Shown: positions 8,276 to 33,059 of the stretch, piece by piece
How positions within the stretch are numbered: position 1 is the first letter of the stretch
Layout of the letters: every line of letters begins with the position of its first letter
Assembly (NCBI GenBank): GCA_948470565.1
Contig: CAOKPF010000017.1
Location: forward strand, 1-33,059
Length of the DNA: 33,059 bases
Reading direction: 5' to 3'
Origin: an uncultured Clostridium sp.
GTDB lineage: Bacteria; Bacillota; Clostridia; TANB77; CAG-465
Notes under the pieces: model-generated
What the model was told of the DNA's origin: nothing
Seen by the model: only the letters and a program-made list of their open reading frames with translations
The model's database searches: none
Translations under genes and position numbers: made by a program

Positions 8276-8295
8276 AAATTTCTCCCTTATTATAT

Positions 8296-8324: not shown

Positions 8325-8328
8325 TAAT

Positions 8329-8415: not shown

Positions 8416-8426
8416 AATAAAAATAC

Positions 8427-8847: not shown

Positions 8848-8925
8848 TATAATAGAGAATACTAAATATATGAATATTCTTTGTATAAAAATTAAAGTTG
8901 TAAAAAATCATATTATTATAATCCA

Positions 8926-8970
8926 ATAACAAAAAAACATTGATTTACATATGTATTTTCAATGTTTTTA
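8926..8970 (+). terminator. Terminator after the Sm-like gene; copy 2 of the hairpin repeat
   Basis: AAAAACATTGA (8933-8943) and TCAATGTTTTT (8959-8969) form an 11-bp stem. It shares ATAACAAAAAAACATTGA and most of the rest with 6906-6950, in the same orientation. Confidence 0.75.
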
Positions 8971-9114
8971 TTCTCTATTATATAAAAATTTCTTTGATTG
9001 TTTTAAAGTTATTGAGATGTATTCTTTTTTTATTATTTATTTTACTGTTCTAATTTATATATTAAGCTGTAAATGTTTATTTAATAGAATGACTTTTATA
9101 TAAAATATAAATTT

Positions 9115-9606
9115 TTATGGAGTAGCAGTAATTCCACTTAAGCCACTAACTAAATCCCATTTATTTTTAGTGTATGTACATTTGTATTTCTGGCTAGTAA
9201 CGCCACTATTTGGTATATAGCAATTTACAGTTATATCTATTTTTCTTTTTGATCTTTTATACGTATTAAGTGTAATAGCTATTCCATCTGCATTATATGG
9301 TATTTTATTAATATTTGCAAGTCTTGCATTATCATTGTATTTTTTTAGGTAAGTTAGTATTTCATTTTTTGAATTAGTTGAAAGTTGTTTTCCTGTTAAA
9401 GGATCAAAAAGGGAAGATTTATCAAATTCAATATAATTGTAATTATTGTTAGATATATTCATATCAATTGAATTATTAATTAAATCCTTATATAAATTTA
9501 TAGCTGCTATTTCATTTCCTTTTATATAATAGATGTAATAATATGATATAAATATCGAAATTGTAATTAAAATAATAACAATTAAGAATAATATTTTTTT
9601 ACTCAT
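9115..9606 (-). CDS. Hypothetical protein with N-terminal membrane anchor
   Basis: Unrecognised 163-aa protein. Residues 5-29 form one strong hydrophobic segment preceded by lysines, so it is a signal anchor or uncleaved signal; there is no lipobox Cys. The remaining ~130 residues are outside the cell if the usual topology holds and contain two Cys (VNCYIP and YKCTYT) that could form a disulfide, in a beta-rich, NTF2-like or lipoprotein-like pattern. AAGGAG precedes ATG 9606, and a TTGAAA-17-TATAAT promoter lies upstream. It stands alone and is transcribed away from the FGE-like gene. Confidence 0.75.
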   Translation of the reverse strand: MSKKILFLIVIILITISIFISYYYIYYIKGNEIAAINLYKDLINNSIDMNISNNNYNYIEFDKSSLFDPLTGKQLSTNSKNEILTYLKKYNDNARLANINKIPYNADGIAITLNTYKRSKRKIDITVNCYIPNSGVTSQKYKCTYTKNKWDLVSGLSGITATP

Positions 9607-9628
9607 ATAATCTCCTTAAACTACATTT

Positions 9629-9657
9629 ATTATATGTTATTTTTAGTAAATTTTCAA
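9629..9657 (-). promoter_or_regulatory. Promoter of the leftward hypothetical gene
   Basis: On the - strand, TTGAAA (9657-9652), 17 bases, then TATAAT (9634-9629), about 20 bases before the AAGGAG site. Confidence 0.75.
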
Positions 9658-9686
9658 TATTTGAATTTGCATTATAGAATTTAATA

Positions 9687-9715
9687 TTTACACTTTAGTA
9701 TATAAATGATATAAT
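9687..9715 (+). promoter_or_regulatory. Promoter of the FGE-like gene
   Basis: TTTACA (9687-9692), 17 bases, TATAAT (9710-9715) preceded by TGA (extended -10). A leader of about 45 bases leads to GGAGGG. Confidence 0.82.
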
Positions 9716-9768
9716 TTTTATATATTTTTTACACTATAATTTTTTATATGCAATTTTTGGAGGGAGTT

Positions 9769-11217
9769 ATGAAGAAAAAATATGTTATATTCATCGTGAT
9801 TTTTGTATTACTTGTATTTTTTATATCATTATTTTTAGCTGTATTATTCTTTAGAGGAGATTTAAATTATATAATTAGAGGTAATAAGTTTATTTCTGCA
9901 GAAAAAAGTAGTGTCATTAAAAGTATTGAAAATAATATTAATAATTATGAAATACTAACTACATTTTATGTAGATGATAAAGAATATCCAATATTTGTAA
10001 TTTTAAATGAAGAAGAAATAAAAGAGTTTATAAATATAGCTAATAATATGAGAATAAAAGCAATTAGAGCAAATGATATAAAATATGGAAGTGAGTATGA
10101 ATTTAATATTACTAATATAAATACTGGTAAAACAACAAAGTTTGCATTAAATAAATCACAGTTATATATTTCAAATTATGAGGTATATGAAACTGAGGAA
10201 GATTATAGAACTATGTTTAGTGACTTTCTTGAAAGAATTGCTAATAATGAATTTATTTCAGTGAATGATACAATTAGTAGGTACAATAATCCAACTATAC
10301 CTGATGGATTTAAGGCGGTAGAGACAAATAATGCAAGTTGGGATTTAGATAATCAAGGTGTACCTAAAGGCTGGAATGATGGCTTGGTTATAGAAGATAG
10401 TAATGGAAATCAATTTGTTTGGGTGCCATGTACAAAAGATGGTGAAAATGGTAGTATTAGATATGGGCGTTATGTGTTAGACAGTGAAAATGATGAGTTT
10501 GTTTATTTGCAAAATAATGTATTTAAGTATCCTACATCAGATTGGAGATATTGTGAAATAAATGCTATAAATAGAGAGGTTTTAGCGAGTATAGAAAAAT
10601 ATCAAGGTTTTTATATTGGCAGATATGAGGCTGGTATAGAAAATGCAGTCGCAGATGAAACACCATACATATATCAGTCAGAAGATTATACACCTTGGGA
10701 AAATGAAGAACTTGTTATAAAAAAAGGTGCATATGTTTGGAACTATATTAATATTAGCAAATCAATAGAATTGGCAAAGAAATTTTGTAATAATGATACA
10801 GTAAAAAGTTATCTTATGACATCAAATTGTTATGATACCACTATAAAATGGATATATGAAACTAAAAAGGATATAATATTAAATAGTGAAAAATATGGAA
10901 ATTACAATGTTGTATTAGAAGATGAAAATAAAAAATATTCGACATTTAAAACAGGTTTAGAAGAAAGATATTGTATAAAAAATATTTATGATATTGCTGG
11001 AAATGCAAAAGAATATACAACAGAAGTTTCTAGTAATGAAAAAATCCCATATTCTAATTATTATAAATATAGTTACGGAGTTATAAGAGATGGTCTATTA
11101 GAACAAAATGGTGATAAGTATGATAATGTTAATAGCTTAATTACTAGAATACCAGAAGTTAATACATACTTTACATCAGCTAATGTTGGATTTAGAGTGA
11201 TATTGATATTAAAATAG
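9769..11217 (+). CDS. Membrane-anchored protein with formylglycine-generating-enzyme-like (SUMF1) domain
   Basis: 482-aa protein. Residues 4-27 form a membrane anchor; residues about 40-170 form an unrecognised extracytoplasmic region; from about 190 to the end the SUMF1/FGE-sulfatase fold is recognisable by FVWVP, GFYIGRYEAG, NIYDIAGNAKEYT (in place of the usual GNVWEW) and the closing VGFRVIL. The catalytic Cys pair and Cu-binding context of true formylglycine-generating enzymes is not apparent, so a binding role is more likely than catalysis. Start ATG 9769 follows GGAGGG; the earlier in-frame ATG at 9748 has none. Clostridial genomes often carry several such proteins. No sulfatase gene is nearby. 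Confidence 0.8.
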   Translation: MKKKYVIFIVIFVLLVFFISLFLAVLFFRGDLNYIIRGNKFISAEKSSVIKSIENNINNYEILTTFYVDDKEYPIFVILNEEEIKEFINIANNMRIKAIRANDIKYGSEYEFNITNINTGKTTKFALNKSQLYISNYEVYETEEDYRTMFSDFLERIANNEFISVNDTISRYNNPTIPDGFKAVETNNASWDLDNQGVPKGWNDGLVIEDSNGNQFVWVPCTKDGENGSIRYGRYVLDSENDEFVYLQNNVFKYPTSDWRYCEINAINREVLASIEKYQGFYIGRYEAGIENAVADETPYIYQSEDYTPWENEELVIKKGAYVWNYINISKSIELAKKFCNNDTVKSYLMTSNCYDTTIKWIYETKKDIILNSEKYGNYNVVLEDENKKYSTFKTGLEERYCIKNIYDIAGNAKEYTTEVSSNEKIPYSNYYKYSYGVIRDGLLEQNGDKYDNVNSLITRIPEVNTYFTSANVGFRVILILK

Positions 11218-11795: not shown

Positions 11796-12063
11796 ATGTA
11801 CAATATAGTGTATAGAAAGCAAGTACTGAAAGATATACCAAAATTAAAATCATCTCGGTTTAAGCCAAAAAGTTAAAGAATTAGTTGAAGTAATAAAGAA
11901 AAATCCTTTTCAAAATCCACCACCTTATGAAAAACTTATAGGAGATTTACAAGGAGCATATTCAAGAAGGATAAATATACAACATAGATTAGTTTATCAA
12001 GTATTGGAGGAAGAAAAAATAATAAAAATAATTAGTGTATGGTCTCATTATGATAATATATAA
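11796..12063 (+). pseudogene. YoeB-like mRNA interferase toxin, frameshifted
   Basis: The frame from ATG 11796 gives MYNIVYRKQVLKDIPKLKSS and then runs off frame to a stop. Removing one base near 11850-11857 restores GLSQKVKELVEVIKKNPF, then PPPYEKLIGDLQGAYSRRIN, IQHRLVYQV and VWSHYDNI, ending at TAA 12061-12063. This is the YoeB pattern, including the Glu in PPPYEKL, the Arg residues and the C-terminal His-Tyr used for ribosome-dependent mRNA cleavage. Restored length is about 88 aa, the usual size. As read, the product is a 26-residue fragment without the catalytic part. Single-base sequencing error is the alternative. Confidence 0.85.
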
Positions 12064-12100
12064 TGAGATTTCTTAATTGTATAGTACAATAAATTGAAAC

Positions 12101-12129
12101 TTGACATAAAGAAAATATGGTAGTATAAT
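12101..12129 (+). promoter_or_regulatory. Promoter of the ankyrin-repeat gene
   Basis: TTGACA (12101-12106), 17 bases, TATAAT (12124-12129): a full consensus match, with a leader of about 60 bases to AAAGGAGG. Confidence 0.9.
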
Positions 12130-12195
12130 AACGCTGTATCAAAACTATTAAAATCTTCTAGATTATGAGGATTAAAAAGTTAAAGGAGGAATATT

Positions 12196-13050
12196 ATGGA
12201 AGATAGAACAATCAAATACGATGATTTGTTAAATATTGTACGGGGTATGAATAAAGATGAGCTTTTTTGTTTTTTCTTACGTGCCTGTGAAAATGAGAAC
12301 TTGCAAGTATGTCAATTATGTTTAGATGCTGGTGCTGATATTAATATGCGTTATCATGAAGATAGTTTACTAGAATGTTTAGTATTTAATAGAACATTAA
12401 CAATTAAGGTTGCAGACTGGCTTATTGAAAAAGGTGCCAATATGGATACTGGAATAAAAGATAATACACTTTTTACAAAAGCTTGTATGAATGGAAATTA
12501 TAATATTGCAAAATACTTTTTTAATAAAGGCGTAAAAGTTAACGAATATAAAAGTCACTGTGAAAGTGATTTAGACTGGGCCGTTTATGGTGGTAATATA
12601 GAGATAGTAAAATTTATATTAGACTTAGGAGTAGATATAGAAGCTTTTAATTATGAACCAAATAATCCATTTATAAGTGCACTAAAAAAGAAAAGAGCTG
12701 ATATAGTAGAATTATTTTTACAAAAAGGGGTATCACCTGATATTTATATTGGAGGTAATACGTTCCTTCATGAGGCAGTAGCAAATAATGATATAAATAG
12801 TGCACGTGTTTTGTTGAAATATAATGCACAAGTTAATGCTAAATTGAAAGCTCCTTGTTATATGATAAAAAAATATTTAGCTATAAATTCTATGGATATT
12901 GCAGTATTTAATAAAAATGAAGATATGCAAAAATTATTGTTAGAATTTGGCGGTATAGTCTCTAACAAAGATGAAAGAATAGAAGTATTATTAGGTTATT
13001 GTAATGATAATGAATTTGCAATGTTAATGAAAAAAATGTTGATTGAATAG
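12196..13050 (+). CDS. Ankyrin-repeat protein
   Basis: 284-aa cytosolic protein of about six ankyrin repeats, a fold used for protein-protein binding. Repeat signatures are visible as LCLDAGADIN, LIEKGANMDT, FFNKGVKVNE, AVYGGNIEIVKFILDLGVDI, LFLQKGVSPD and HEAVANNDINSARVLL..NAQVN. There is no signal peptide, membrane segment or enzymatic domain. AAAGGAGG precedes ATG 12196, and the gene has its own perfect promoter and a stem-loop after it. The base composition seems slightly less AT-rich than the neighbours. It lies next to a toxin-antitoxin remnant, so it may be part of an accessory island. Partner unknown. Confidence 0.88.
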   Translation: MEDRTIKYDDLLNIVRGMNKDELFCFFLRACENENLQVCQLCLDAGADINMRYHEDSLLECLVFNRTLTIKVADWLIEKGANMDTGIKDNTLFTKACMNGNYNIAKYFFNKGVKVNEYKSHCESDLDWAVYGGNIEIVKFILDLGVDIEAFNYEPNNPFISALKKKRADIVELFLQKGVSPDIYIGGNTFLHEAVANNDINSARVLLKYNAQVNAKLKAPCYMIKKYLAINSMDIAVFNKNEDMQKLLLEFGGIVSNKDERIEVLLGYCNDNEFAMLMKKMLIE

Positions 13051-13071
13051 TAACGTTTTTTAACTATTGAC

Positions 13072-13103
13072 AATGAGAGCATTTATTTTTAAGTGTTCTC
13101 ATT
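13072..13103 (+). terminator. Probable terminator after the ankyrin-repeat gene
   Basis: AATGAGAGCA and TGTTCTCATT form a 10-bp stem with one G-T pair and a 12-base loop. Only a weak T-run (ATTTAATT) follows. Confidence 0.55.
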
Positions 13104-13171
13104 ATTTAATTAATATATATAATTTTGGACATTTTGAATATTTGTATTTAATATAAATAAAATATTATTCA

Positions 13172-13230
13172 TGATAATCAAGTATAATTATAATGTAAAT
13201 TTAGTAAATGGTACATTTTGTTGATTATCA
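13172..13230. repeat. Separated inverted repeat upstream of the secretion operon
   Basis: TGATAATCAA (13172-13181) and TTGATTATCA (13221-13230) are perfect inverted copies 39 bases apart. They lie upstream of the operon promoter at 13268 and are candidate regulator half-sites. The rest of the gap between the ankyrin gene and 13385 shows nothing else. Confidence 0.55.
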
Positions 13231-13267
13231 CTTATATTGTAATTTATAGAAAAATATAAATTTTTTC

Positions 13268-13296
13268 TTGACATTCATAAAATACTGTGCTAATAT
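13268..13296 (+). promoter_or_regulatory. Promoter of the VirB4/Tad-like operon
   Basis: TTGACA (13268-13273), 17 bases, TAATAT (13291-13296) preceded by TGC (extended -10). The leader of about 80 bases ends in AGGAGG at 13374-13379. Confidence 0.8.
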
Positions 13297-13384
13297 ATTA
13301 GTACATTTTTTCAAATATTTTTTTCAAATTCATTTTACAAATCGTAAAATTTTCAAAATAAAATACAAAATGTAGGAGGTGGTA

Positions 13385-13918
13385 ATTTTTAAGAAGAATA
13401 CATATAAAGATATATTTGAGTTATACAATATACAAAAAATAACTGATGAATGTATAGAGGTTTGTATAAATAAAATAAAGAAAAAAGTATATATATATGA
13501 GATTTCCCCTATAACTATACTTAACATATCTGATGAAATAGTGTCTAATATAACTAATATATACACAGAATTTTTAAGAGAATTAGAAATTGAATTTCAA
13601 ATACTAGTATCAAATCAAAAATTAGATGTAGAAAAATACATTCAAGATTTTATGCAATTTATAGATATAGACAAAAATATGAGTGAAATATATGTAGAAT
13701 ATATAGAAGATATAAAAAAGAAATTATATGATGAACAATTATATAACACTAAATATTATATAATTACATATATAAAGAATACAAGCATTAAAAAAGAAAA
13801 GGAGATAATGGCAACACTATGTAAGCTAAAACAAATAGGTTGTAACGTAAAAAGAATAATCGGAAGAAACAATTTGTTAAAAATAATGTATAACTCTATA
13901 AACAAAGAATTTATTTGA
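13385..13918 (+). CDS. TraC-like type IV secretion accessory protein
   Basis: About 177 aa, first gene of the secretion operon. Phrases such as YIYEISPITILNISDEIVSN, IYTEFLRELEIEFQILVSNQ and VEKYIQDF resemble TraC-like proteins, related to the N-terminal domain of VirB4 ATPases, that precede virB4 in Gram-positive and other type IV secretion loci. The start is unusual: AGGAGG ends at 13379, and the only suitably placed in-frame codon is ATT at 13385; a GTG at 13379 would overlap the binding site. Probably cytosolic or membrane-associated and a partner of the VirB4 ATPase encoded nine bases on. Family assignment is by pattern only. Confidence 0.65.
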   Translation: MFKKNTYKDIFELYNIQKITDECIEVCINKIKKKVYIYEISPITILNISDEIVSNITNIYTEFLRELEIEFQILVSNQKLDVEKYIQDFMQFIDIDKNMSEIYVEYIEDIKKKLYDEQLYNTKYYIITYIKNTSIKKEKEIMATLCKLKQIGCNVKRIIGRNNLLKIMYNSINKEFI

Positions 13919-13927
13919 GGTGATAAA

Positions 13928-15724
13928 ATGCAAGATGAAAAATCTATAATACCATCATATATAGATAATACTAATTTTAGATATTTAAAAGTAGATAATA
14001 AATATATAGCAAGCATTATAATATCTGATTATCCTAGAGAAATTGACGTATTTGAATTTATAGAAGCTCTCTTAAACAATGTTTCTTATGATATGTCAAT
14101 GTATATTCAAAAACAAGATACAGCAAACATTCTAAAACAATTATCATATAGTATATCATCATCAGGTACAGAACTTAAAACTGCTAATGAAAATCAGCTT
14201 GATATAGATATATTAGATAGGTTAAAAGAAGATGCAAAAAGACTTAGAAGAGATATACAATTAAATAATGAAGAGGTATATTACTTAAACATATATATTA
14301 CGTTATATGATACAGATAAACAAAATTTATTAAATATTTTAAAAAGATTTCAAAGTAGACTTTATTCAAAATCAATTATTTCTAATATTGCTAATTTTAG
14401 GCATTTAGATTCATATATTTTAACTTTACCCTTAGTTAATTTTGAAAATAAATTATTGAAAAATTCATATAGAAATATCACAACCAGTACACTTAGTAAT
14501 TTTTTCCCATTTTATACCAAAACAATATTTGACAAATATGGCGTTATATTTGGATATACATTAAATGAAAATAGAATGTGTAGTATAGATATATTTAATG
14601 AAAAGTATCTAAATGCAAATATGTGTATTTTTGGTAGTAGTGGTTCAGGCAAATCATATTTTACTAAGGTACATATTATAAGAGAGTTTTTGTTGGGGAA
14701 ACATCAATATATTTTTGATCCTGAGGGAGAATATGTAAATATAGCAAAGAGATTAAATTCACATAGTATTTCATTTAAAGATAAAAGTACTAATAAATAT
14801 ATAAACATATTGCAAATTACACAAGTAGATATAAAAGTTTATGGGGAAAATGTAATTTTTGAGTGTATAGAAAATAGTACCAAGTTTTTAGCCCAGTTAT
14901 GCTGTATTCAAAATGAAGGATATATTCAGGAATTAAAACTAGGAATAAAAAAAGCATATGAGTATAAAGGTATTAGTACTATAAATGATTTATACTTAGA
15001 AGAAGAAGGAGAGAAGATTTTTTTAGATAAAAAACTAAAGGGTGCTAAATATTATCCAAATTTATATGATATGATGGAAAATATTACTTCAGAGAAATTA
15101 GTACATATTATAAAAGAAAATATTATAGATAAATATCCATGTTTAACCCAAAATACAAATGTGGATATATATTCAAAATTATTTGTATATGATTTATCTG
15201 ATATTAGTACATATGATGCTGTAATTTTTATAAAATTCTTTTTGAATAAAATAGAACAGAAATTAAAACTGGAAAAAAACTCGATAAGTGAAAATAATGT
15301 AGGTATTAACACATTGATATACTTTGACGAAATATGGAAATATATTAGCATGAAAGGAAAATTTAATCTATCTGAAAAGATATTTTCAATGTTTAAAACT
15401 ATAAGAAAATATAAGGCAGGCATTGTAGTAATAACACAAGATGTATCTGATTTTTTCTCATATGAGAATGGCAGTTATGGAAAAACTATACTAAATAATT
15501 CTTGTTTTAAATTGTTTTTCAAATTAGAATATTCTGATATAAAAGTATTAGATAAACTTAATATATTAAATTCATATGTTTATGAAAAAATATCATATCT
15601 TGGTAAAGGACAATTATTAATGATGTTTAAAAATAATATAGCATTGCTTAATGTAAAGGCAAATAGCTATGAAAATAATATTGTAGAGGAGGGAAAAAAT
15701 GAAATTAATAGTAGCACTAAATAA
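13928..15724 (+). CDS. VirB4-type conjugation/secretion ATPase
   Basis: 598-aa ATPase that in relatives energises assembly of or transport through a type IV secretion channel at the inner face of the membrane. The N-terminal ~200 residues match the VirB4/TraC N domain (including RLKEDAKRLRRDI and the NFRHLDSYILTLPL stretch). Walker A GSSGSGKS is at 236-243, followed by FDPEGEYVNIAKRL; Walker B LIYFDEIW has Asp467-Glu468; TQDVSDFF follows as in the family. GAGGTGATAAA precedes ATG 13928. Its 3' end overlaps the next gene by 26 bases. No relaxase, coupling protein, VirB6 or VirB8 is encoded in the window. Confidence 0.87.
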   Translation: MQDEKSIIPSYIDNTNFRYLKVDNKYIASIIISDYPREIDVFEFIEALLNNVSYDMSMYIQKQDTANILKQLSYSISSSGTELKTANENQLDIDILDRLKEDAKRLRRDIQLNNEEVYYLNIYITLYDTDKQNLLNILKRFQSRLYSKSIISNIANFRHLDSYILTLPLVNFENKLLKNSYRNITTSTLSNFFPFYTKTIFDKYGVIFGYTLNENRMCSIDIFNEKYLNANMCIFGSSGSGKSYFTKVHIIREFLLGKHQYIFDPEGEYVNIAKRLNSHSISFKDKSTNKYINILQITQVDIKVYGENVIFECIENSTKFLAQLCCIQNEGYIQELKLGIKKAYEYKGISTINDLYLEEEGEKIFLDKKLKGAKYYPNLYDMMENITSEKLVHIIKENIIDKYPCLTQNTNVDIYSKLFVYDLSDISTYDAVIFIKFFLNKIEQKLKLEKNSISENNVGINTLIYFDEIWKYISMKGKFNLSEKIFSMFKTIRKYKAGIVVITQDVSDFFSYENGSYGKTILNNSCFKLFFKLEYSDIKVLDKLNILNSYVYEKISYLGKGQLLMMFKNNIALLNVKANSYENNIVEEGKNEINSSTK

Positions 15725-16955
15725 TGAAAAGATAAAAAGTAAACTAACAGAAAAGTATGGAAGTGATGTATACGAACAAGATATAACATATATGGAGGGA
15801 GTAATTGAATTTATAAGTAGATATAATGATGAAATTACAATTATTACAAAAGATACTCTTAGTGGCAATTTAACCAAAATTTTGTATGTGAAACAAATTA
15901 GGCTCGCTAATCCAAATGCTAAAGTAATATATATAGTTGGAAATTTAACAGATGAATACAAAGAGTTTTTGTTTGCTAATGAAATTTTTAATATAATAGA
16001 GGGAAATGAAATTGAAGTTGATAATATAATAGATTGTATTGAAAATGGAAAAGAGGTAGTATACAAAAACAATGAAATAAGTTATATTCCAGAGTTTGCT
16101 TTTAATGAGCCTGCTCAAGATATGGAATATTTGAGTCAAAATCAAGTTATAACCAAACAACTAATAGCAGTTTATGGAACAAGTGGTGCAGGAAAGTCTG
16201 TATGTTCAAGTATTATTGCAAAGGAAATTGCTGACAGATTAAATATATCAGTTGCACTACTAGACATGGATTTTGAAAATTCTTCAATGGATATTATAAA
16301 TAATATAGATACAAATATCAGTTCATTAACAAGTTTTGTAGAGGATATAGATAAAATGATTGATATAAATAACAATATGGAAAGTTACATGATAAAAGAT
16401 AAAAGAAATAGCAAAATTTCATATTTTACTAATAAGACTGGTATATTTGAATGCCAAAATAAGCTTTCAGTAAAATATTATTCAAAAATATATTCTGCTA
16501 TAAAATCAGCATATGATTATACAATAGTAGATCTTCCAGCAAGCCCATTTTTGGATATTGTACTATATACATTAAATATATCAACCAAAGTATTTTTTGT
16601 TATTAATGCAAATTATACTAGTATAAGACAAGCAACTAAATATTTAGATATGCTAACAAAATTGTGGGAGATTCCAAAATCAAAAATTGGTATAGTTGTA
16701 AATAAAGTTCAAAAAGATTCGTTAGATAATATTCAAATTGAGGCGATGTTAAAAGATTATGAGGTAATTGCTAATATTGGAAATAACAAAAGTATGGAAG
16801 CATATGTAAATGGTGTAGTTTCAAATATAGATTTTAGTATAAATTGTGATAAAATTTATGATAAACTAGGTGTTAAGAATGTAAATTCTAAGAAGAAAAA
16901 ATTTAAACCTATAAATTTATTTATAAACAAGAAAGGAAATAATAATGATAATTAA
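15699..16955 (+). CDS. TadZ/CpaE-like ParA/MinD-fold ATPase
   Basis: 418-aa protein. Residues 1-130 form a receiver-like domain without an obvious phospho-acceptor pattern, and residues about 150-400 a ParA/MinD-fold domain with P-loop GTSGAGKS at 160-167, a LLDMDFENSS switch and IVDLPASPFLD. The P-loop lacks the signature lysine of the KGGxGKT type, a deviation also described in TadZ proteins. In Tad systems TadZ/CpaE places the pilus machine at a cell site. GAGGAGGG lies inside the end of virB4-like, giving a 26-base overlap. Presence directly before a TadA/CpaF homologue supports the call. Confidence 0.83.
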   Translation: MKLIVALNNEKIKSKLTEKYGSDVYEQDITYMEGVIEFISRYNDEITIITKDTLSGNLTKILYVKQIRLANPNAKVIYIVGNLTDEYKEFLFANEIFNIIEGNEIEVDNIIDCIENGKEVVYKNNEISYIPEFAFNEPAQDMEYLSQNQVITKQLIAVYGTSGAGKSVCSSIIAKEIADRLNISVALLDMDFENSSMDIINNIDTNISSLTSFVEDIDKMIDINNNMESYMIKDKRNSKISYFTNKTGIFECQNKLSVKYYSKIYSAIKSAYDYTIVDLPASPFLDIVLYTLNISTKVFFVINANYTSIRQATKYLDMLTKLWEIPKSKIGIVVNKVQKDSLDNIQIEAMLKDYEVIANIGNNKSMEAYVNGVVSNIDFSINCDKIYDKLGVKNVNSKKKKFKPINLFINKKGNNNDN

Positions 16956-18132
16956 TCCTTTTAATATTAATAATTTATATGTGTCAGATGAAACTGAAAT
17001 AAATGTTGATACAAAAGGAAATGAAAGTAATATAGATTTTAAACTATTAGAAAAGTATATAATAAATAATTATATGAATTATTTGCAAAATAATTTAAAA
17101 CAAGAGTTAATGTCAAAAATACATGAATATTTATATGATACATATTCCATTAAAGATAATGAAAAGTTAATGGAAGTATCTGATAAAATTATTAATAAAA
17201 TGTTTGGATATGATATACTTCAAAAGTATATAGAAGATATAGAAATTACAGATATTAGAGTAGTTAAGTATAATAGTATATATGTAAAGAAAAAAGGTAA
17301 TTGGATAAAGACAATAGATGCTTTTGAAAGTGATGAAATTTTTGAGGAATATGTTAGATATTGTATATTAAAAAATAATGGTAATATAAATTATGATACG
17401 CCAATTGTCGTAATAAGTGATAAAAAGTATAATCTTAGAATAGAGGCTGGAATTAGTCCAGTTAATGTAAATTCACCAAGTTTAGTTATAAGAATACATA
17501 GGCATAATTTTAATATAACATTAGAAAATCTTTTTGTTATTGATGAGATGTTAGATGCAAGTTCGTATAAAATAATATCTAATGCTATAAATAATAGATG
17601 TAATATTGTTATATCAGGAAAAGGTGGAAGTGGTAAGACCAGTTTACTTAGGGCAATAATCAATAAAATTCCAGATGAGTGGGCTATAACAATAAATGAA
17701 GAATCTACAGAATTATTTATACAAGGTAAAAATATAATTCAAAGAGAAATTATAAAAAATAGAGAAAATAATAAAAAAATTACATTACAAAAATTAATGG
17801 AACATTCTCTTGTAATGTCAAATGATGTTATAGTTGTAGGTGAGTTAAAAGGTGAGGAAACTTCATATTTTATAGATGCAATTAGCACAGGGCATATGGG
17901 ACTTGCAACAGTTCATGCTAGTAGTGCACTAAATACACTTGATAGGATATTAGTATTATTTAAAAGAGATATTAAAAATCAGCAATATAATGAAGTTTTT
18001 GTTTCAAAGATTTTAGCTACAAGTATAGATTATATAATATATATAGAAGACTATAAAGTAAAACAAATTGCAACTGTAGATTTTGATAAATGTAATGAAA
18101 GGTTAGTAATAGAAAATATTTATGAGAGGTGA
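16945..18132 (+). CDS. TadA/CpaF-family secretion ATPase
   Basis: 395-aa hexameric secretion ATPase of the VirB11/CpaF/TadA family, which powers pilus extension or secretion at the cytoplasmic membrane. The N-terminal helical part (IDFKLLEKYIINNYMNYLQN) is followed by the CpaF pattern YDILQKYIEDIEITDIRV. Walker A GKGGSGKT lies at 225-232, then EESTELFI, Walker B DVIVVGELKGEE, and the His-box TGHMGLATVHASS. AAAGGAAA precedes ATG 16945, overlapping the preceding gene by 11 bases. VirB11 is the alternative label, but adjacency to TadZ-like and TadB/C-like proteins favours TadA/CpaF. Confidence 0.9.
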   Translation: MIINPFNINNLYVSDETEINVDTKGNESNIDFKLLEKYIINNYMNYLQNNLKQELMSKIHEYLYDTYSIKDNEKLMEVSDKIINKMFGYDILQKYIEDIEITDIRVVKYNSIYVKKKGNWIKTIDAFESDEIFEEYVRYCILKNNGNINYDTPIVVISDKKYNLRIEAGISPVNVNSPSLVIRIHRHNFNITLENLFVIDEMLDASSYKIISNAINNRCNIVISGKGGSGKTSLLRAIINKIPDEWAITINEESTELFIQGKNIIQREIIKNRENNKKITLQKLMEHSLVMSNDVIVVGELKGEETSYFIDAISTGHMGLATVHASSALNTLDRILVLFKRDIKNQQYNEVFVSKILATSIDYIIYIEDYKVKQIATVDFDKCNERLVIENIYER

Positions 18133-18137
18133 TATTA

Positions 18138-19010
18138 ATGATTAGTGTTATATCTAGTTTAATCCTATTTGTAATAATATATTTTTCAACAAATGTAATT
18201 TTTAGTTTTTTTGAAACAAGAAAAGTAAATAATTTTTTAAATAATATGTCTTATACCAAGAAATTTAAAGCATATATATATGAATTTGAAAAATCATATA
18301 ATAAAAAGGTAAAATTTATATCATTAATAAATATATTAATATTTTCATTTATACTATCAGTAATTGTATTTGTCAGTGTATATAGTTTTGTAAAAATAGT
18401 ATCTACGGCATTAATTATAGCTATATTTTCTTTTTTTCTACCATATTTTTTCGTAAAGTATTTAGTAAAAATAAAAAAACAACAAATCTTAAATATATTT
18501 CCTACATATGCAGTTAATTTAAAAAATTACACTAAAATTGATAATGATATAGTAATAGCATTTAGAAAAACAAAAACTAGTAAACCTTTAAGTTTGTATA
18601 TAGATAAATTTAATTTATCAGTTGAAAAGGGATTAAATGTGTATGAGGCGTTTAATGAATTAAAAAACGATATAAATATAAAGAGTATAAATGACTTTTT
18701 AACTGCTGCACAATATTCATATCTAAATGGTGGCAATTTTAACCAATTACTTGATAAGTATTCAAAAATTCTGGTAAAAGCTAATATCCAAAGAGAAAAA
18801 GAAAAACAGGAAAGTTTTTCATCAAAATTTATTTTATTTTTACTTATAATTATAAACATATATATTTTGTTTATTTTTATATTTTCAAATGAAGAATATA
18901 GGAGCATAATGTTTCAAACTAATACAGGAAAATTTATTATAAATTTAAATATTATTTCTTATATTTTTATATTTTATTTTATTCATAAATTAAATGAAAT
19001 GGAGGAGTGA
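18138..19010 (+). CDS. TadB/TadC-like inner-membrane platform protein (type II secretion F domain)
   Basis: 290-aa membrane protein. Hydrophobic segments at about 2-22, 58-80 and 85-105 precede a cytoplasmic helical domain (LSLYIDKFNLSVEKGLNVYEAF through YSYLNGGNFNQLLDKYSKIL) typical of T2SF platform proteins, and two more segments close the protein. Standard Tad loci have two such proteins, TadB and TadC; only one is here. GAGAGGTGA precedes ATG 18138, which is preferred over an in-frame GTG at 18129 that lies inside the binding site. It probably forms the membrane base on which the CpaF-like ATPase acts. Confidence 0.8.
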   Translation: MISVISSLILFVIIYFSTNVIFSFFETRKVNNFLNNMSYTKKFKAYIYEFEKSYNKKVKFISLINILIFSFILSVIVFVSVYSFVKIVSTALIIAIFSFFLPYFFVKYLVKIKKQQILNIFPTYAVNLKNYTKIDNDIVIAFRKTKTSKPLSLYIDKFNLSVEKGLNVYEAFNELKNDINIKSINDFLTAAQYSYLNGGNFNQLLDKYSKILVKANIQREKEKQESFSSKFILFLLIIINIYILFIFIFSNEEYRSIMFQTNTGKFIINLNIISYIFIFYFIHKLNEMEE

Positions 19011-19016
19011 TTGATT

Positions 19017-19754
19017 ATGACTAATTTAAATGAATTTAACTTAATAGAGGGAATAAACTTAGAAAAAAGTAATGATTTAGAACTTAGTAGAACATCAAAT
19101 GAATTTGAAAATATTGTTAAAAATGCAATTGATAAAGGAGCAGAATTTATTATAAAAGCATCCCCTCTAAATACGCATATAAAAGATATACTAATAGATG
19201 TAAAAGATGCATTAAAAACTAAGGACTTCAAAGAAATATTAAAAACTGCAGTAAATAGTAGTATAAGGGAAGGAATTGAGATTTTAAATTTACCTAAAAC
19301 TACATTAAAAAATATCACAAATATAGCAAACTCCGCTTTTAAAGGCGGACTTCCACTTGCAATTAATACAACACTTGATATATTTATAAAGAAAAAATAT
19401 AATGGAAATATTTTCTTTAATTATATCTCTAGTTTTGCAAGTGAATTAAAATCATTCGTAAATAGTAGAAGTTTTAAAGATAGAGTAACAAGTGGAGTTA
19501 ATAAGGTAACAAATAATATAGAAAATTTCAAAGAACTATGCCAAAACTGGCATAATTCATATAATAATAAAAATTTGGATATTGAAAAAATTAACCAAAT
19601 AGCTTTAGATATAAAAAAGAAAAGCAAGGAATTAAAGAATTTTGCAGATTGTATAAGAGAAAATAATGTTATTCAAAATATGACTGAACTAATTAATAGC
19701 AAGAAAGACAAACTATCTGATACACAACTTGAAATTTGCAGTAGTTTAGCATAA
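19017..19754 (+). CDS. Unrecognised helical protein, last gene of the VirB4/Tad operon
   Basis: 245 aa, no function recognised. The protein is almost entirely helical, with no signal peptide; a moderately hydrophobic middle (LPKTTLKNITNIANSAFKGG, LPLAINTTLDIF) could be a membrane-active or buried helix pair. The last 100 residues are a charged, coiled-coil-like region with two Cys. ATG 19017 fits GGAGGAG at 19001-19007 with a spacing of 9; TTG 19011 is less well placed. As the only gene of the operon without a family, it might be a secreted substrate, a pilus component or an anchoring factor; these are guesses. Confidence 0.7.
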   Translation: MTNLNEFNLIEGINLEKSNDLELSRTSNEFENIVKNAIDKGAEFIIKASPLNTHIKDILIDVKDALKTKDFKEILKTAVNSSIREGIEILNLPKTTLKNITNIANSAFKGGLPLAINTTLDIFIKKKYNGNIFFNYISSFASELKSFVNSRSFKDRVTSGVNKVTNNIENFKELCQNWHNSYNNKNLDIEKINQIALDIKKKSKELKNFADCIRENNVIQNMTELINSKKDKLSDTQLEICSSLA

Positions 19755-19756
19755 AA

Positions 19757-19789
19757 TAAGTAGACAGTATATACCACCTACTTATGTAT
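19757..19789. terminator. Possible stem-loop between convergent genes
   Basis: ATAAGTAG and CTACTTAT can pair over 8 bp around a 14-base loop, between the end of the VirB4/Tad operon and the converging kinase gene. There is no T-run, so a terminator role is uncertain. Confidence 0.4.
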
Positions 19790-19812
19790 AATTATACTAA
19801 TAAACTTTTATT

Positions 19813-20388
19813 TTAAAATTCTAATATACTTTTTATTTTAGACTTTAACTCTTCAAAATCACCATCATTAGCAACCTTATAAACTTTTATATTTTTGTAA
19901 TTTTCTTCAATTTCACTAGCTAGTTGTAAGTATGCTTGTTGTTGCTTTACACTACTTTCTACATTAAATTTTGCATATTTAGTGATACCTTTGTCCTTTC
20001 TTTGTAATCTTTTTTCATATAAAGATGTATCATTTAAGTAGAGAGAAATGTAGTATATATCATATGACATATCATTTAGTTTTTTTGCATATTCAAGATA
20101 TTTATCAGTAAAGGAATATTCCTTGAAACCAAGTCTACAATATACCTCTTCAGTAAAAAATGTTCTGTCAAATAACAAATTAATGTCTAATTTTTGAAGT
20201 TCATATATATATGACATAAGTGCATTGTACATAGCTGTAGATTTGTCTAATCCATCAGGTGTACTTTGTGAAGTTCCACATAATCTATACAGATTTGTAT
20301 AGGGCATAGAATAACGTATAAAATCTGTGACAGTGGTTTTTCCTGTTCCTTGTGGTCCTTCAACTATTATTAATTTTGATGTATTCAT
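19813..20388 (-). CDS. P-loop nucleoside/nucleotide kinase-like protein
   Basis: 191-aa soluble kinase of the thymidylate/deoxynucleoside kinase fold. Walker A GPQGTGKTT lies at residues 11-19 right after the first strand, LLFDRTFFTEEVYCRLG is the DR(S/T)-type substrate and Mg site, and the RLQRKDKGI region acts as lid. AAAAGGAGG precedes ATG 20388. It converges on the secretion operon and is monocistronic. Length and motifs fit either dTMP kinase or dNK-like enzymes; substrate cannot be decided. Confidence 0.82.
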   Translation of the reverse strand: MNTSKLIIVEGPQGTGKTTVTDFIRYSMPYTNLYRLCGTSQSTPDGLDKSTAMYNALMSYIYELQKLDINLLFDRTFFTEEVYCRLGFKEYSFTDKYLEYAKKLNDMSYDIYYISLYLNDTSLYEKRLQRKDKGITKYAKFNVESSVKQQQAYLQLASEIEENYKNIKVYKVANDGDFEELKSKIKSILEF

Positions 20389-24393: not shown

Positions 24394-24421
24394 AGGTGTT
24401 GTATGTAATAATACAGCACCT
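24394..24421 (-). terminator. Terminator of the lemA-dut-splB group
   Basis: AGGTGTTGTA and TACAGCACCT form a 10-bp stem with one G-T pair. On the - strand it ends in TTTT and starts right at the splB stop codon. It may also serve the convergent 200-aa gene. Confidence 0.75.
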
Positions 24422-25432
24422 TAAACTATATATTTTATTTCAAAATTATCAAAATTTTTATTTATACATTCGACTAAAAATTTTTTTGCAGTTTCTTTAA
24501 CAGAGTTTTTATAATGGTATTTTCCAATTCCTCTATTAGTCATTAATTCAGTAGAATAAAGTTTAATTGCGTTTGGAAAAGCCTCTTCGTTAATTTTTCT
24601 ATGAACATAGCTATATGTCATAAAAATAATTTCAAATGTAATATGTTTTTTTGAAGTTTTTGATAGATTGTTTTTTAAATAAGAAAATAATTCAGAATAG
24701 ATTTTTTCAAAATTATCAGTAATAATTATCGGTGCAATTAATATATATACAGGATAGCCAAGTTCAGATAATATATTAATAGTATCAACCCTATCTTTTA
24801 AATTACTAGTTCTAAATTCAACCTTATTAATTATATATTCAGGATTTAAGCTAATTCTTGGTATAACTCTATTATTATGTTTAATATTTAATAAAGGCTC
24901 AATAAACTTAAATTTTGTAGGAAATGTAAGTTTTCCTTTATTTGTATTATTTAAAAAATAATTTATATTATCACTTAAGTTTTCAGTAACCAAATTTTCT
25001 AATAGTAAATCACTATTACTGCCTATTTCAAAAACAAGTTCTTGATCACTATTATTAGAGAATTTTATAAGTTTTGAAAGAATTTCTTTGGTATTTACAA
25101 ATACTCTTAAATATGAACACTTATTATAATTACAGACTAGATAGCAGTACATACACATAGCAACCAGATGATGTAAAAGGTACTAAATAATCTGAAATTT
25201 TATGATTTTCTGTATATTTATGAGTTTTACGAGCTCCAATTATTAAATAGTCTTTTAATTTAGTAAAATCTTTATTTTCATATTTTCTTAATTCCTCTAT
25301 ATTATTATGAGATGTAATTTTATGTTTTTCTATATTTTGATATTTATTAAGTAGCATTTTTCCAAGTGGATATTTTTCAATATTTTCCTCATAATATATT
25401 CTATCAAAATTAGGAAATATTATATTATTCAT
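24421..25432 (-). pseudogene. splB: Spore photoproduct lyase, frameshifted in the radical SAM motif
   Basis: Radical SAM enzyme that repairs the thymine dimer specific to spores. The first part (from ATG 25432) holds YPLGKMLLNKY, LIIGARKTHKY and YLVPFTSSGC, then leaves frame and stops at 25130-25132. The second part resumes at MCMYCYLVCNYNKCSYLRVF and runs to 24421. Relatives read GCTAMCxYC at this point (Cys-x3-Cys-x2-Cys); here five bases are missing between two TGC copies near 25145, which removes the spacing between the first and second iron-sulfur Cys and shifts the frame. The rest is intact, so the damage is recent, or a sequence error. A neighbour of lemA and dut in one leftward group. 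Confidence 0.88.
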
Positions 25433-25482
25433 TTTTAACACCGTTAATAGTATAACCATAAATGAATAAATTATAAAATATA

Positions 25483-29640: not shown

Positions 29641-32600
29641 GTGTTTAAGGAAAATAATGAGTTATCATTCGGTTTTGATTTAGGAATTGCCTCAGTTGGT
29701 TGGGCAGTTACTAATATTAAAACTAATGAAATAATCGATAAAGGAGTATATTTATTTTCAGAAGTAAATAAATCACAAGAAAGAAGATATATAAGAAGTT
29801 TAAGGAGATTAAGAAAGCGAAAACTTCATAGAGTTGAAAGGGTATACCAAATTTTTGAAAGAAAAGGTATAAATATAAAATGTGTACCAGATGCAAATTT
29901 ACTAGATAAGCGAATAAAATCACTTTATGAAAAGGTTGAATTACAAGATTTAGTAAATATTATAATATATTACATTAAACATAGAGGGCATATATTATAT
30001 GAAAATGAGAGATTATTTACTACATATGTAACTGATTATAAAGAAGGCGAATATCCATGTCATATCCAAAAGAAGATATTACAAAATGCTGGTAAGTATA
30101 GAGGATTAAAATATGTTTTTATGCATGAGGATTATGTTAGAGAAATAACCCAAATATTGCATATGCAAAGTAAGTGGTATAATGACTTTTTATCTGGTGA
30201 GGTTATAGATGAAATTATTAATATTCTAAAACGTAAACGAAAATTTTGGGAAGGTCCTGGTGGTCCAAAATTAAATCAACTTAGTAAGTATGGTAGGTAT
30301 AAATGTAAAGAAGATATAGAAAAATATAATATAGATAAAAACTATAATAAGTTTTTGTATGAACAATTTATCGGAAAATGTAAAGTGTATCATGGTGAAA
30401 AGAAAACGCCATATTCTAATTTTTACGTAGAGTACTTCAATATATTTAATGATTTAATGGGATTGAGATTTGATAAATCACAGATAAATCATATAAATTC
30501 TAAATATTTTGTTAGAGTAAATCAAAATTTATATAAATTAACATCAAATAGTGCTCAAATTCTAATTGAAGAAGTATTAGATTTAGAAAAGCTAAATATT
30601 TCAAAGGTTATAAAAGAATTATTTTTTGTAGAGGAATTTGTTAAAAATTCAAAAAATGAAATAAAAATATCATCTTTTGAAAATTATAGAAAGTTAAGAC
30701 GAACTATAAATAATAATGAAATATTTAACATTATTAAATCTGATATAGATTTATATAATGATATTATGTATGTAGTTCAAGTATCACCAGATAATTTGTC
30801 AAGATATGAAATTTTAAAAGAAAAATTTTCTGAGTATATTCCAGATGATTATTTAAAAGTAATATCTAATTTAAACTTAGAAAATAAATATCATAGTTTT
30901 TCTGAAAAAGCTTTAAAGCAATATATTAAATATATGCAAATTTCAAATGAAAATTCTACGTATGTTGCTAATAATTTTGCAAATGAAATTGCATCTGATG
31001 TTGAAGAATATAAAATACAAAAATATATAAGTAACAATAAGACGGGAGAGTTAAAATACATAGCAAAATATTTCGTTGATGAATTAGAGGCATCACCACA
31101 AATGAAAAAAACATTGAGGAAAGCTATTCTTGTAATAAATAGATTATTTTCAAAATTTGGTTATCCTAAATATATATGTATTGAAACTGCAAAGGTATTA
31201 TTAAATTCTAAGCAACAAAAAGAACAGGAGAAAATGACATTAGACAATCAAAATATAAGAAAATATGCTAAGGATTTTTTAATTCAAAATAATATTGAGA
31301 TAAGTAAATATAATATAGATAGATTTATTTTATACTGTGAATGCAATCAAAAATGTATTTTTTGTGATAAAGAATTGGATTTTGAAAGTACATATATTAC
31401 CAATATATTACCTGTTAATAAAGTATATGATGATACATATTCTAATAAATGTATAGCTTGTAATATATGTAGAGAAAAAATTTCTAATGTTATACCAATG
31501 AAATTTGTTGATAATGTGGATAACTATATTAAAAGAATAAATAAAAATAAGAAATTGGGCGATATAAGGAAGGGATACTTGCTATTTAACTTAAATATAG
31601 ATAAATATAAAAAGAAATTTAAAAGCAGTAATTTAAATGATACAGCTTATGCTAGTAATGAATTTGCTAATTTAATTAATACTTTTAAAAAAGCATATTA
31701 TAGAATTAATGGGATTAATCTTAAATTAAGTGTAATAAAAGTACCTGGGCAATTTACACATAGAATTAGAGAAAAGTATGATATTGTTAAGGATAGAGAG
31801 CAAAAATTTCACCATGCTGTTGATGCAACTATTGTATCATCAATTCCAAATTGTAATATTGGTAAAATAATGAATTTTATTCAAAATAAAAGTGATGAGT
31901 ATTGGTTAAGTAAGCTTATGGACGATTACAGAGATAATATTAATGATAATTTATATTTAGAAAGTTCTATTATAGAAAATTTAAAAAGTGCTAATTATAC
32001 AAATACTAGAGTATGTTTAGAAGTAAAAAAGGATATAAATGCTAAACTTTTTAATTCAACAATTAATACTTGTTTTAAAAAAGATGATAATTTTTTTAGA
32101 ATTAGTAAAATAAAAAATATTTATGAATTAGAACCCAAAAAAGTAAAAGATATTTTTAAAAAGAAGCTTTTGTGTAAAGAAAAAGATGTAATATTATACA
32201 ATAAGCTTTTTGATATATCAAATAACTATTATGATGAAAATATTAATGCTTTTAAAAAGTATTGTATTGAAAATTATAATATTGATCAAATTGAATTTAA
32301 TCCTAATATTCATGGGATAAGAAGAAATAATAGTGAAAAGTCACCAATTGTTAAGAGTATAAAATATTATGAACATGCTAATATGCCATTCCTTTTAACT
32401 AAGAAAAATATTAATAAAAAGGAAAGTAAACTTTTAGCATATAATATGTTATCTACTTATTGTATTAGAATATATATAAATAAAGTTACAAGTGAGTATC
32501 GAATTATGCCTATATATAGGATTTTTTTTAATTTAGATAATGAAAGTTTAAATGTAGAAAATCCATATTATAAGCAAATATTTAAAAATTATGTTGGAAT

Positions 32601-32817
32601 AGATGATACAAATATATTGTTTTATATGGATTTATTTAAAAATGATATGGTAAGATATGAAGATGAGTTTGGAAAACATGAAGGGGTTATTGGTTGTTTT
32701 AATAAAGTGGATTGCTCAATAATGATGAAAAATGGTGAAAGAAAAATTACAAAAAATACTAAAAACATAGAAAGAATAAATACTGATATTTTAGGTATTT
32801 ACAATTTTAATATTTAA
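29641..32817 (+). CDS. cas9: Compact Cas9 (type II) with RuvC intact and HNH catalytic pair lost
   Basis: 1058-aa RNA-guided DNA endonuclease homologue, the size of type II-C Cas9. RuvC-I FGFDLGIASVGWAV has Asp13; the Arg-rich bridge helix (RRYIRSLRRLRKRKLHRVER) starts near residue 48; RuvC-II YICIETAK has Glu515; RuvC-III HHAVDAT has His725 and Asp728. The HNH core aligns as YITNILPVNKVYDDTYSNK at 585-603: where active enzymes have Asp-His before I-[IL]-P, this one has Thr587-Asn588. The later Asn602 and Asn608/616 region is kept, flanked by Cys pairs 572/575 and 604/607/610, a probable zinc knuckle. The LNDTAYASNEF linker and a PAM-interacting C-terminus follow. Predicted to nick only the non-target strand or only to bind. 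GTG start with GGAGG. No cas1, cas2 or csn2 beside it. Confidence 0.94.
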   Translation: MFKENNELSFGFDLGIASVGWAVTNIKTNEIIDKGVYLFSEVNKSQERRYIRSLRRLRKRKLHRVERVYQIFERKGINIKCVPDANLLDKRIKSLYEKVELQDLVNIIIYYIKHRGHILYENERLFTTYVTDYKEGEYPCHIQKKILQNAGKYRGLKYVFMHEDYVREITQILHMQSKWYNDFLSGEVIDEIINILKRKRKFWEGPGGPKLNQLSKYGRYKCKEDIEKYNIDKNYNKFLYEQFIGKCKVYHGEKKTPYSNFYVEYFNIFNDLMGLRFDKSQINHINSKYFVRVNQNLYKLTSNSAQILIEEVLDLEKLNISKVIKELFFVEEFVKNSKNEIKISSFENYRKLRRTINNNEIFNIIKSDIDLYNDIMYVVQVSPDNLSRYEILKEKFSEYIPDDYLKVISNLNLENKYHSFSEKALKQYIKYMQISNENSTYVANNFANEIASDVEEYKIQKYISNNKTGELKYIAKYFVDELEASPQMKKTLRKAILVINRLFSKFGYPKYICIETAKVLLNSKQQKEQEKMTLDNQNIRKYAKDFLIQNNIEISKYNIDRFILYCECNQKCIFCDKELDFESTYITNILPVNKVYDDTYSNKCIACNICREKISNVIPMKFVDNVDNYIKRINKNKKLGDIRKGYLLFNLNIDKYKKKFKSSNLNDTAYASNEFANLINTFKKAYYRINGINLKLSVIKVPGQFTHRIREKYDIVKDREQKFHHAVDATIVSSIPNCNIGKIMNFIQNKSDEYWLSKLMDDYRDNINDNLYLESSIIENLKSANYTNTRVCLEVKKDINAKLFNSTINTCFKKDDNFFRISKIKNIYELEPKKVKDIFKKKLLCKEKDVILYNKLFDISNNYYDENINAFKKYCIENYNIDQIEFNPNIHGIRRNNSEKSPIVKSIKYYEHANMPFLLTKKNINKKESKLLAYNMLSTYCIRIYINKVTSEYRIMPIYRIFFNLDNESLNVENPYYKQIFKNYVGIDDTNILFYMDLFKNDMVRYEDEFGKHEGVIGCFNKVDCSIMMKNGERKITKNTKNIERINTDILGIYNFNI

Positions 32818-32826
32818 TGCTATAAT
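32798..32826 (+). promoter_or_regulatory. Promoter of the small RNA, inside the end of cas9
   Basis: TTTACA (32798-32803) lies within the last cas9 codons; 17 bases on is TATAAT (32821-32826) with a TGC extension. The expected start is near 32833. Confidence 0.85.
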
Positions 32827-32832
32827 GGATTT

Positions 32833-32920
32833 GCATGTTAAATGCTAGGAATATTACGGTGTTCTTTATTATAACAGTAGAATACGGAATTGAGGGGGCT
32901 TTTGCCCCTTTCTTTATTAT
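32833..32920 (+). ncRNA. Predicted small RNA next to cas9, tracrRNA candidate
   Basis: A stretch of about 85 bases between a near-consensus promoter and a strong terminator, with no reading frame. It begins with a GCAT/ATGC hairpin; the middle can fold through TATT/AATA, AC/GT and TGTT/AACA around a 9-base loop; it ends in the terminator stem. Size, position and a terminal GC-rich hairpin fit a tracrRNA, but no repeat is available in the window to test the anti-repeat. It could alternatively be a cas9-associated guide-like RNA of another kind. Confidence 0.68.
32893..32920 (+). terminator. Terminator of the small RNA
   Basis: AGGGGGC, a TTTT loop and GCCCCTT pair over 7 bp (one G-T), followed by TCTTTATTAT. 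It also ends cas9 read-through. The remaining 139 bases of the window hold no gene or repeat that I can see. Confidence 0.88.
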
Positions 32921-33059
32921 ATAGTATATAGGTAGTTGTAAAATTGTATAAGTATAAAAAATACATATTTTTGTAAGAACATAAATGTAATACTTTTGAA
33001 ATTTAATGTAAATGTCAAGTAAAAAGTTAATAAAAAGTGGAAAATAAAAAAGTCATAAA

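What the first reader, a model, noticed from the sequence alone, without database searches (positions are those of the whole stretch)
31381..31500. Naturally HNH-inactive Cas9: catalytic Asp-His replaced by Thr-Asn while RuvC is complete
Seen in the sequence: the HNH core reads I-T-N-I-L-P...DDTYSNK (residues 586-603), where active Cas9 enzymes have I-D-H-I-[IVL]-P...DDS-x-NK. The general-base His is Asn588 and the preceding Asp is Thr587. RuvC residues Asp13, Glu515, His725 and Asp728 are all present, and the reading frame is uninterrupted over 1058 codons. Known: mutation of this His in SpCas9 (H840) abolishes target-strand cleavage. Inference: a natural non-target-strand nickase, or a binding protein used for gene control, or a partner of another nuclease. 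Conservation of the surrounding HNH framework argues against random decay.
Basis: partly seen in the sequence, partly recalled or inferred. Interest (0 to 1): 0.92.

Follow-up and report, generated by a model that had tools for sequence, protein, structure and literature searches.

The report
Natural Cas9 with a dead HNH
A gut bacterium carries an intact Cas9 gene in which only one of the two DNA-cutting sites has been lost, so it should cut a single DNA strand at most, and three other unrelated Cas9 genes in the same bacterial order have lost that site too.

Summary
The HNH domain holds no histidine, yet its predicted fold and CxxC pairs persist. All RuvC residues are kept. The loss belongs to this branch: the nearest relatives (44% identity) have a normal Glu-His…Asn site, so Thr-Asn is not conserved. 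It is not simple decay. HNH is the domain selectively lost, the frame has no stop where neutral decay predicts at least 19, and a homologous tracrRNA gene with promoter and terminator follows cas9. No type II cas1 or matching CRISPR repeat was found in the assembly; an insertion-sequence end lies about 190 bp downstream. Three further HNH-dead Cas9s, on separate branches, occur in the same order. All four lack adaptation genes and arrays, whereas 34 of 37 intact loci have cas1. Best reading: an RNA-guided, RuvC-only Cas9, most likely a non-target-strand nickase (IsrB-like in action) derived from a type II-A system. Guide, target and activity are unknown; binding-only regulator or late relic remain possible.

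The parts
29641..32817 (+). cas9 CDS, 1058 aa, GTG start
   Evidence: TIGR01865 336 bits; 44% identical over full length to the Cas9 of L049/L061
31321..31560 (+). HNH domain (residues 561-640), no histidine; fold and CxxC pairs retained
   Evidence: alignment; structure
31399..31404 (+). T587-N588 codons (acc aat) in place of Asp/Glu-His (SpCas9 D839-H840)
31471..31473 (+). R611 codon in place of the catalytic Asn (SpCas9 N863)
29677..29679 (+). RuvC-I D13 (SpCas9 D10)
31183..31185 (+). RuvC-II E515 (SpCas9 E762)
31810..31824 (+). RuvC-III HHAVD (H724, H725, D728)
32798..32826 (+). promoter TTTACA-17-TATAAT (11 of 12, extended -10) starting inside the last codons of cas9
32833..32916 (+). predicted tracrRNA: anti-repeat (about 32830-32863), hairpin GTGTTCT/AGAATAC, terminator hairpin
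   Evidence: homologous in sequence and position to tracrRNAs of L049, L092, L093; terminator 32892-32911
33007..33059 (.). 53-bp end of a multi-copy insertion-sequence-like repeat where the contig breaks
   Evidence: shared with own-genome contigs C114 (L138), C71 (L175) and, over at least 40 bp, C79 (L183)

Best explanation
This is a functional, chromosomal, RuvC-only Cas9. It descends from a type II-A-like CRISPR-Cas9 (shown: nearest relatives have cas9-tracr-cas1-cas2 plus a fourth gene and an array). In its own lineage the HNH catalytic triad was lost while RuvC, the bridge helix, the REC and WED/PI regions, the reading frame and the tracrRNA gene were kept (shown by comparison). It should therefore still load a tracrRNA:crRNA-type guide, open an R-loop, and nick only the non-target strand (inferred, by analogy with SpCas9 H840A and the natural HNH-less nickase IsrB). 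The source of its guide is not in the assembled contig: the sequence runs into an insertion sequence about 190 bp after cas9, and no matching repeat was found elsewhere in the 97%-complete assembly. Its targets, and whether it serves residual defence or gene control, are unknown.
For: (1) All three HNH catalytic residues are replaced and the domain has no His, yet the fold is kept. (2) HNH is selectively lost: of positions invariant in the window's three relatives, 21/64 are kept in HNH against 123/193 in RuvC (Fisher p = 2e-5). Relative L049, tested against the other intact Cas9s, shows no such bias (p = 0.53). (3) Not pseudogene drift: in 300 neutral simulations, by the time all three catalytic residues had changed every run had at least 19 stops and 297 had lost a RuvC catalytic residue; the window has none of either (supporting simulation). 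(4) A tracrRNA gene with an 11/12 promoter and terminator is retained and has diverged in step with that of the relatives. (5) HNH loss recurs: four HNH-dead Cas9s on four branches, 0/4 with cas1 against 34/37 intact, non-edge loci (p = 3.5e-4).
Against: No crRNA, repeat or array matching the tracrRNA was found in the assembly, so a guide is not shown. The neighbouring insertion sequence and missing cas1 are also what a dying locus looks like. No relative closer than 44% was found, so selection after HNH loss is inferred from simulation and domain contrasts, not from dN/dS. In one parallel case (L103) RuvC is dead too, which favours binding over nicking there. In Cas9, HNH movement helps activate RuvC, so RuvC activity with a degenerate HNH is not guaranteed.
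Confidence: 0.52

Rival explanations
1. RNA-guided DNA-binding regulator (natural dCas9-like): cleavage has become irrelevant and the protein blocks transcription at one or few chromosomal sites with a solitary guide, as FnCas9 does with scaRNA or type II-A Cas9 with tracr-L.
For: Parallel orphan L103 has lost both nuclease sites but keeps an open frame and a tracrRNA. HNH-dead L047 is followed by a promoter, about 25 nt, a single repeat and a terminator, laid out like an scaRNA. Precedents: PMC12231574, PMC11417352, PMC6199352.
Against: In the window RuvC catalytic residues are strictly kept and RuvC is the most conserved part, which a binding-only role would not require. No solitary repeat or self-match of 12 nt or more to the tracrRNA 5' part was found in the window.
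Confidence: 0.22
2. Relic: an orphaned cas9 on its way out, HNH lost first, frame still open by chance or by recent loss of selection.
For: No array, no type II cas1, an insertion sequence next door. Relative orphan L013 has a premature TGA. No close relative keeps the variant.
Against: Neutral simulation predicts at least 19 stops by this stage; HNH-specific rather than gene-wide loss; tracrRNA promoter, hairpin and terminator intact.
Confidence: 0.18
3. Still an interference system: it defends with a guide source beyond the contig end, and RuvC nicks, or successive RuvC cuts on both strands as in Cas12, are enough.
For: The contig stops 242 bp after cas9, so a downstream array is not excluded; relative L049 has cas9-tracr-array without cas1.
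Against: No repeat complementary to the anti-repeat in the assembly; the contig end is an insertion sequence, not an array.
Confidence: 0.06
4. Assembly or alignment artefact.
For: The assembly is a fragmented draft; a spore photoproduct lyase gene 4.5 kb away is frameshifted.
Against: Substitutions are in frame, concern three separate codons, and lie in a preserved framework; the frame is open for 1058 codons.
Confidence: 0.02

Closest known systems
Type II-A Cas9 (St1Cas9-like; relatives L049/L092/L093 here)
   Same: Full-length Cas9 architecture, RuvC residues, bridge helix, Zn-type CxxC HNH framework, tracrRNA downstream of cas9
   Different: HNH triad lost; no type II cas1/cas2 or array found
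IsrB (OMEGA nickase, PMC9581776)
   Same: Predicted action: RuvC-only, RNA-guided, non-target-strand nick
   Different: IsrB never had an HNH domain, is about 350 aa, uses a long omega-RNA and is transposon-linked; this is a 1058-aa Cas9 with a dead HNH and a tracrRNA
Phage-encoded RuvC-inactive type II-C Cas9 (PMC10910872; variant II-C2 in PMC12669027)
   Same: A natural Cas9 with one nuclease domain lost, array-less, tracrRNA nearby, ORF kept
   Different: There RuvC is dead, HNH apparently active, phage-borne with an SNF2 helicase; here HNH is dead, RuvC intact, near chromosomal housekeeping genes
FnCas9 with scaRNA / type II-A tracr-L repression (PMC12231574, PMC11417352)
   Same: Cas9 used for gene control through a non-array guide RNA; a solitary guide-like unit sits beside parallel orphan L047
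   Different: Those Cas9s are nuclease-competent; no scaRNA was found in the window
Naturally cleavage-inactive Cas12 (V-C, V-M; PMC12669027)
   Same: Repeated natural loss of nuclease sites with retained RNA-guided binding
   Different: Type V effectors; loss of RuvC, not HNH

Membership tests
Cas9 protein family (type II effector) | Matches the Cas9 profile over full length above the curated cut-off | tested here: met
   TIGR01865 336.5 bits, residues 9-1044, cut-off 100
Cas9 protein family (type II effector) | RuvC catalytic residues D, E, H, D | tested here: met
   D13, E515, H724-H725, D728
Cas9 protein family (type II effector) | HNH catalytic residues D/E-H ... N | tested here: not met
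   T587, N588, R611; no His in residues 561-640
Functional type II CRISPR-Cas locus | tracrRNA gene | tested here: met
   Homologous to tracrRNAs of three relatives, promoter and terminator; expression not tested
Functional type II CRISPR-Cas locus | CRISPR array with a repeat complementary to the anti-repeat | tested here: inconclusive
   No match in window or own assembly; contig ends at an insertion sequence and the draft is incomplete
Functional type II CRISPR-Cas locus | cas1-cas2 adaptation genes of type II | tested here: not met
   The only cas1 in the genome lies in a type I locus on C13
IsrB OMEGA nickase | No HNH domain, about 350 aa, PLMP domain, omega-RNA | tested here: not met
   1058 aa with REC lobe and a folded HNH
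IsrB OMEGA nickase | RNA-guided nicking of the non-target strand | not testable with these tools
   needs purified protein
Phage RuvC-dead type II-C Cas9 | RuvC inactivated, HNH active | tested here: not met
   The reverse is seen
scaRNA-type regulatory Cas9 | Solitary small RNA with promoter, guide and repeat-like part pairing with tracrRNA | tested here: inconclusive
   None found in the window; present beside parallel orphan L047

The most novel reading that the evidence does not exclude
In one order of gut Clostridia, orphaned Cas9 genes have repeatedly lost HNH activity and been retained as RNA-guided nickases or DNA-binding regulators that work with a stand-alone tracrRNA and a solitary guide instead of a CRISPR array: a Cas9 counterpart of nuclease-dead TldR and Cas12 regulators.
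Probability: 0.35. Interest if true: 0.88.

Novelty: new variant of a known kind. Interest (0 to 1): 0.7.

Why it matters
The 2025 CRISPR-Cas classification (PMC12669027), in the passages read, describes many naturally inactivated Cas12s but only one inactivated Cas9 variant, phage-borne with RuvC dead. A chromosomal Cas9 with the opposite lesion, together with three more HNH-dead Cas9s on separate branches that all lack adaptation genes and arrays, suggests that Cas9 too is repeatedly turned into something other than a double-strand cutter. It makes the question 'what is Cas9 for once it cannot cut both strands?' directly testable, and offers natural nickase or dCas9 scaffolds.

Tried and rejected
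Structure of the whole Cas9 from a two-row alignment failed (mean pLDDT 30) and was not used. Peptide-pattern scans with the window protein alone found nothing in viral or genome contigs; the alignment scan found one full relative (L061 = L049) and one N-terminal fragment cut by a contig end (L062). Viral, phage and plasmid collections hold only distant Cas9s; the eight viral-contig ones inspected have an intact HNH. Rfam gave no match in the window. I considered that the contig ends at a CRISPR array and rejected it: it ends in a multi-copy insertion-sequence-like repeat. I considered that Cas9 borrows the resident type I array and rejected it: the anti-repeat does not pair with that repeat (-6.9 kcal/mol against about -39 for relatives' cognate pairs). 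Genomic targets for the solitary guides of L047 and L103 were not found beyond the guides themselves; one two-mismatch match for L103 equals the control. A single clade of HNH-dead Cas9s was rejected: the tree forces four changes. Literature searches found no report of a natural HNH-dead, RuvC-intact Cas9, but only open-licence papers are held.

Full report
WHAT IS THERE. The window is the whole contig C17 of a 2.1 Mb, 126-contig draft genome (97% complete). Its last gene is a 1058-codon Cas9 (29641-32817, +). T587 and N588 occupy the columns of the HNH Asp and His in alignments with St1Cas9 and with 44 other Cas9s from the same order. The third catalytic residue, the metal-binding Asn (SpCas9 N863), is Arg611. 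No histidine lies in residues 561-640, so no neighbouring His can substitute. RuvC D13, E515, H724/H725 and D728 are all there. The HNH domain modelled alone (mean pLDDT 79, nine-row alignment) finds Cas9 HNH domains as its best solved matches, so the fold is kept; the four Cys of the CxxC pairs are kept as well. The whole-protein model failed.

WHEN THE LOSS HAPPENED. The closest full-length relatives are Cas9s of three genomes in another family of the same order: L049 (44%; public record CANQQQ010000044.1, uncultured Clostridia MAG 'Lapin-008'), L092 and L093. All three have Glu-His...Asn, so Thr-Asn-Arg arose on the window's own branch. L092 and L093 are followed by tracrRNA, cas1, cas2 and a fourth gene in the csn2 position (no family match), and L093 also has arrays; L049 keeps the tracrRNA and a short array and shows a remnant of the cas1 start. 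The ancestor was therefore a II-A-like system.

WHY IT IS NOT SIMPLE DECAY. (a) The change is domain-specific. Of positions invariant in the three relatives, the window keeps 33% in HNH, 59-69% in the RuvC segments (the first counted together with the bridge helix) and 44-47% in REC and WED/PI; HNH against RuvC p = 2e-5. Relative L049 and unrelated L016 show no such bias. (b) A neutral simulation from the L093 gene with AT-rich mutation gives at least 19 stops in every one of 300 runs by the time the three catalytic residues have changed, and an unchanged RuvC site in only 3 of 300 (an independent series, gives 6-37 stops on average at 95-66% protein identity). The window has no stop and an intact RuvC site. 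(c) A tracrRNA gene follows cas9: promoter TTTACA-17-TATAAT (11/12) at 32798-32826, a transcript of about 84 nt aligning along its length with the three relatives' tracrRNAs, and a terminator at 32892-32911. These arguments show that selection maintained the protein and its RNA after HNH was lost. They do not show that selection continues today.

WHAT IS MISSING. The only cas1 in the genome belongs to a type I locus on C13 with its own array; its repeat does not pair with the window's anti-repeat. Pattern searches of the whole assembly for the predicted repeat found only the tracrRNA itself and one two-mismatch hit without an array. Sixty smaller contigs were read and hold no array. The contig ends inside a 53-bp sequence shared with contigs C71, C79 and C114, which behaves like the end of a multi-copy insertion sequence. 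An insertion about 190 bp after cas9 thus explains the contig end, and the guide source, if any, is unresolved.

IT IS NOT ALONE. Among 45 Cas9 loci examined in the order, four have lost HNH catalytic residues: the window (T-N...R), L013 (D-Y...K), L047 (D-Y...I) and L103 (D-Y...A, with RuvC E, HH and D also lost). A tree built without the HNH columns needs four separate changes (long branches, so placement within clades is approximate). None of the four has cas1 or an array next to it, against cas1 in 34 of 37 intact loci not cut by a contig edge (Fisher p = 3.5e-4; 1.5e-3 counting edge-cut loci as lacking it; 2.0e-3 without the window, whose flank is truncated). L103 keeps a tracrRNA and has one repeat-like element after cas9 that pairs with it (-21.1 kcal/mol; shuffles mean -6.8, best -15.9). 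L047 has, after cas9, TTGATT-17-TATAAT, about 25 nt, a single repeat and a perfect terminator, the layout of an scaRNA; no tracrRNA was recognised near it. L013 keeps a tracrRNA but its cas9 has a premature TGA near the C-terminus. No genomic targets were found for the two solitary guides.

HOW IT PROBABLY WORKS. Shown: protein and tracrRNA gene retained, HNH chemistry impossible on present knowledge of the catalytic residues, RuvC site intact. Inferred: the complex still forms an R-loop and nicks the non-target strand, as HNH-mutated SpCas9 does (established knowledge) and as IsrB does naturally (PMC9581776). RuvC conservation favours nicking over mere binding in the window, whereas fully dead L103 points to binding there. 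Whether the outcome is defence or gene control is open.

COMPARISON AND NOVELTY. The nearest published case is a phage-borne, array-less type II-C Cas9 with RuvC dead and HNH active, proposed to be an anti-CRISPR decoy (PMC10910872; PMC12669027). Here the lesion is the opposite one and the neighbours are chromosomal housekeeping genes (rRNA dimethylase, acetyltransferase, transglycosylase). I file it as a Cas9 family protein that is not a complete type II system, and as a new variant of a known kind.

Noticed in passing
L047 (G002:C8) about 6880-7030, next to cas9 7029-10334 (-): Beside an HNH-dead Cas9: promoter TTGATT-17-TATAAT, about 25-nt guide-like stretch, one repeat GTTATACTTTCCTATTGTTTTATAATAAAT and a perfect intrinsic terminator, i.e. 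a solitary crRNA/scaRNA-like unit with no array. No tracrRNA was recognised nearby and no genomic target found.
   Followed up: partly
L103 (G390:C2), cas9 6288-9461 (+): A Cas9 with both nuclease sites lost (HNH D-Y...A; RuvC E to K, HH to KY, D to N), open frame, tracrRNA upstream and a single repeat downstream preceded by TATAAT and about 20 nt: a candidate natural dCas9 with its own guide.
   Followed up: partly
L013 (G024:C12), cas9 4489-7527 (-): HNH-dead orphan Cas9 (D-Y...K) with tracrRNA kept but a premature TGA near the C-terminus; a transposase-like gene lies just upstream.
   Followed up: partly
L049 (G185:C44) about 3440-3710: cas1-cas2-fourth gene apparently deleted between tracrRNA and array, leaving the first codons of cas1; cas9, tracrRNA and a five-repeat array remain.
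   Followed up: partly
window 24421-25459 (-): Spore photoproduct lyase is split in two frames (profile positions 4-88 and 91-337) by a +1 frameshift near the Cys motif: pseudogene or assembly error.
   Followed up: partly
window 33007-33059: End of a multi-copy insertion-sequence-like element (also on own contigs C71, C79, C114) about 190 bp after the Cas9 stop codon.
   Followed up: yes
L012 (G000:C13) 12025-20000: The same genome carries a type I CRISPR-Cas locus (I-B-like by gene order) with a small array, repeat ATTTAAATACAACTATTGTTAAAGTTAAAC.
   Followed up: no
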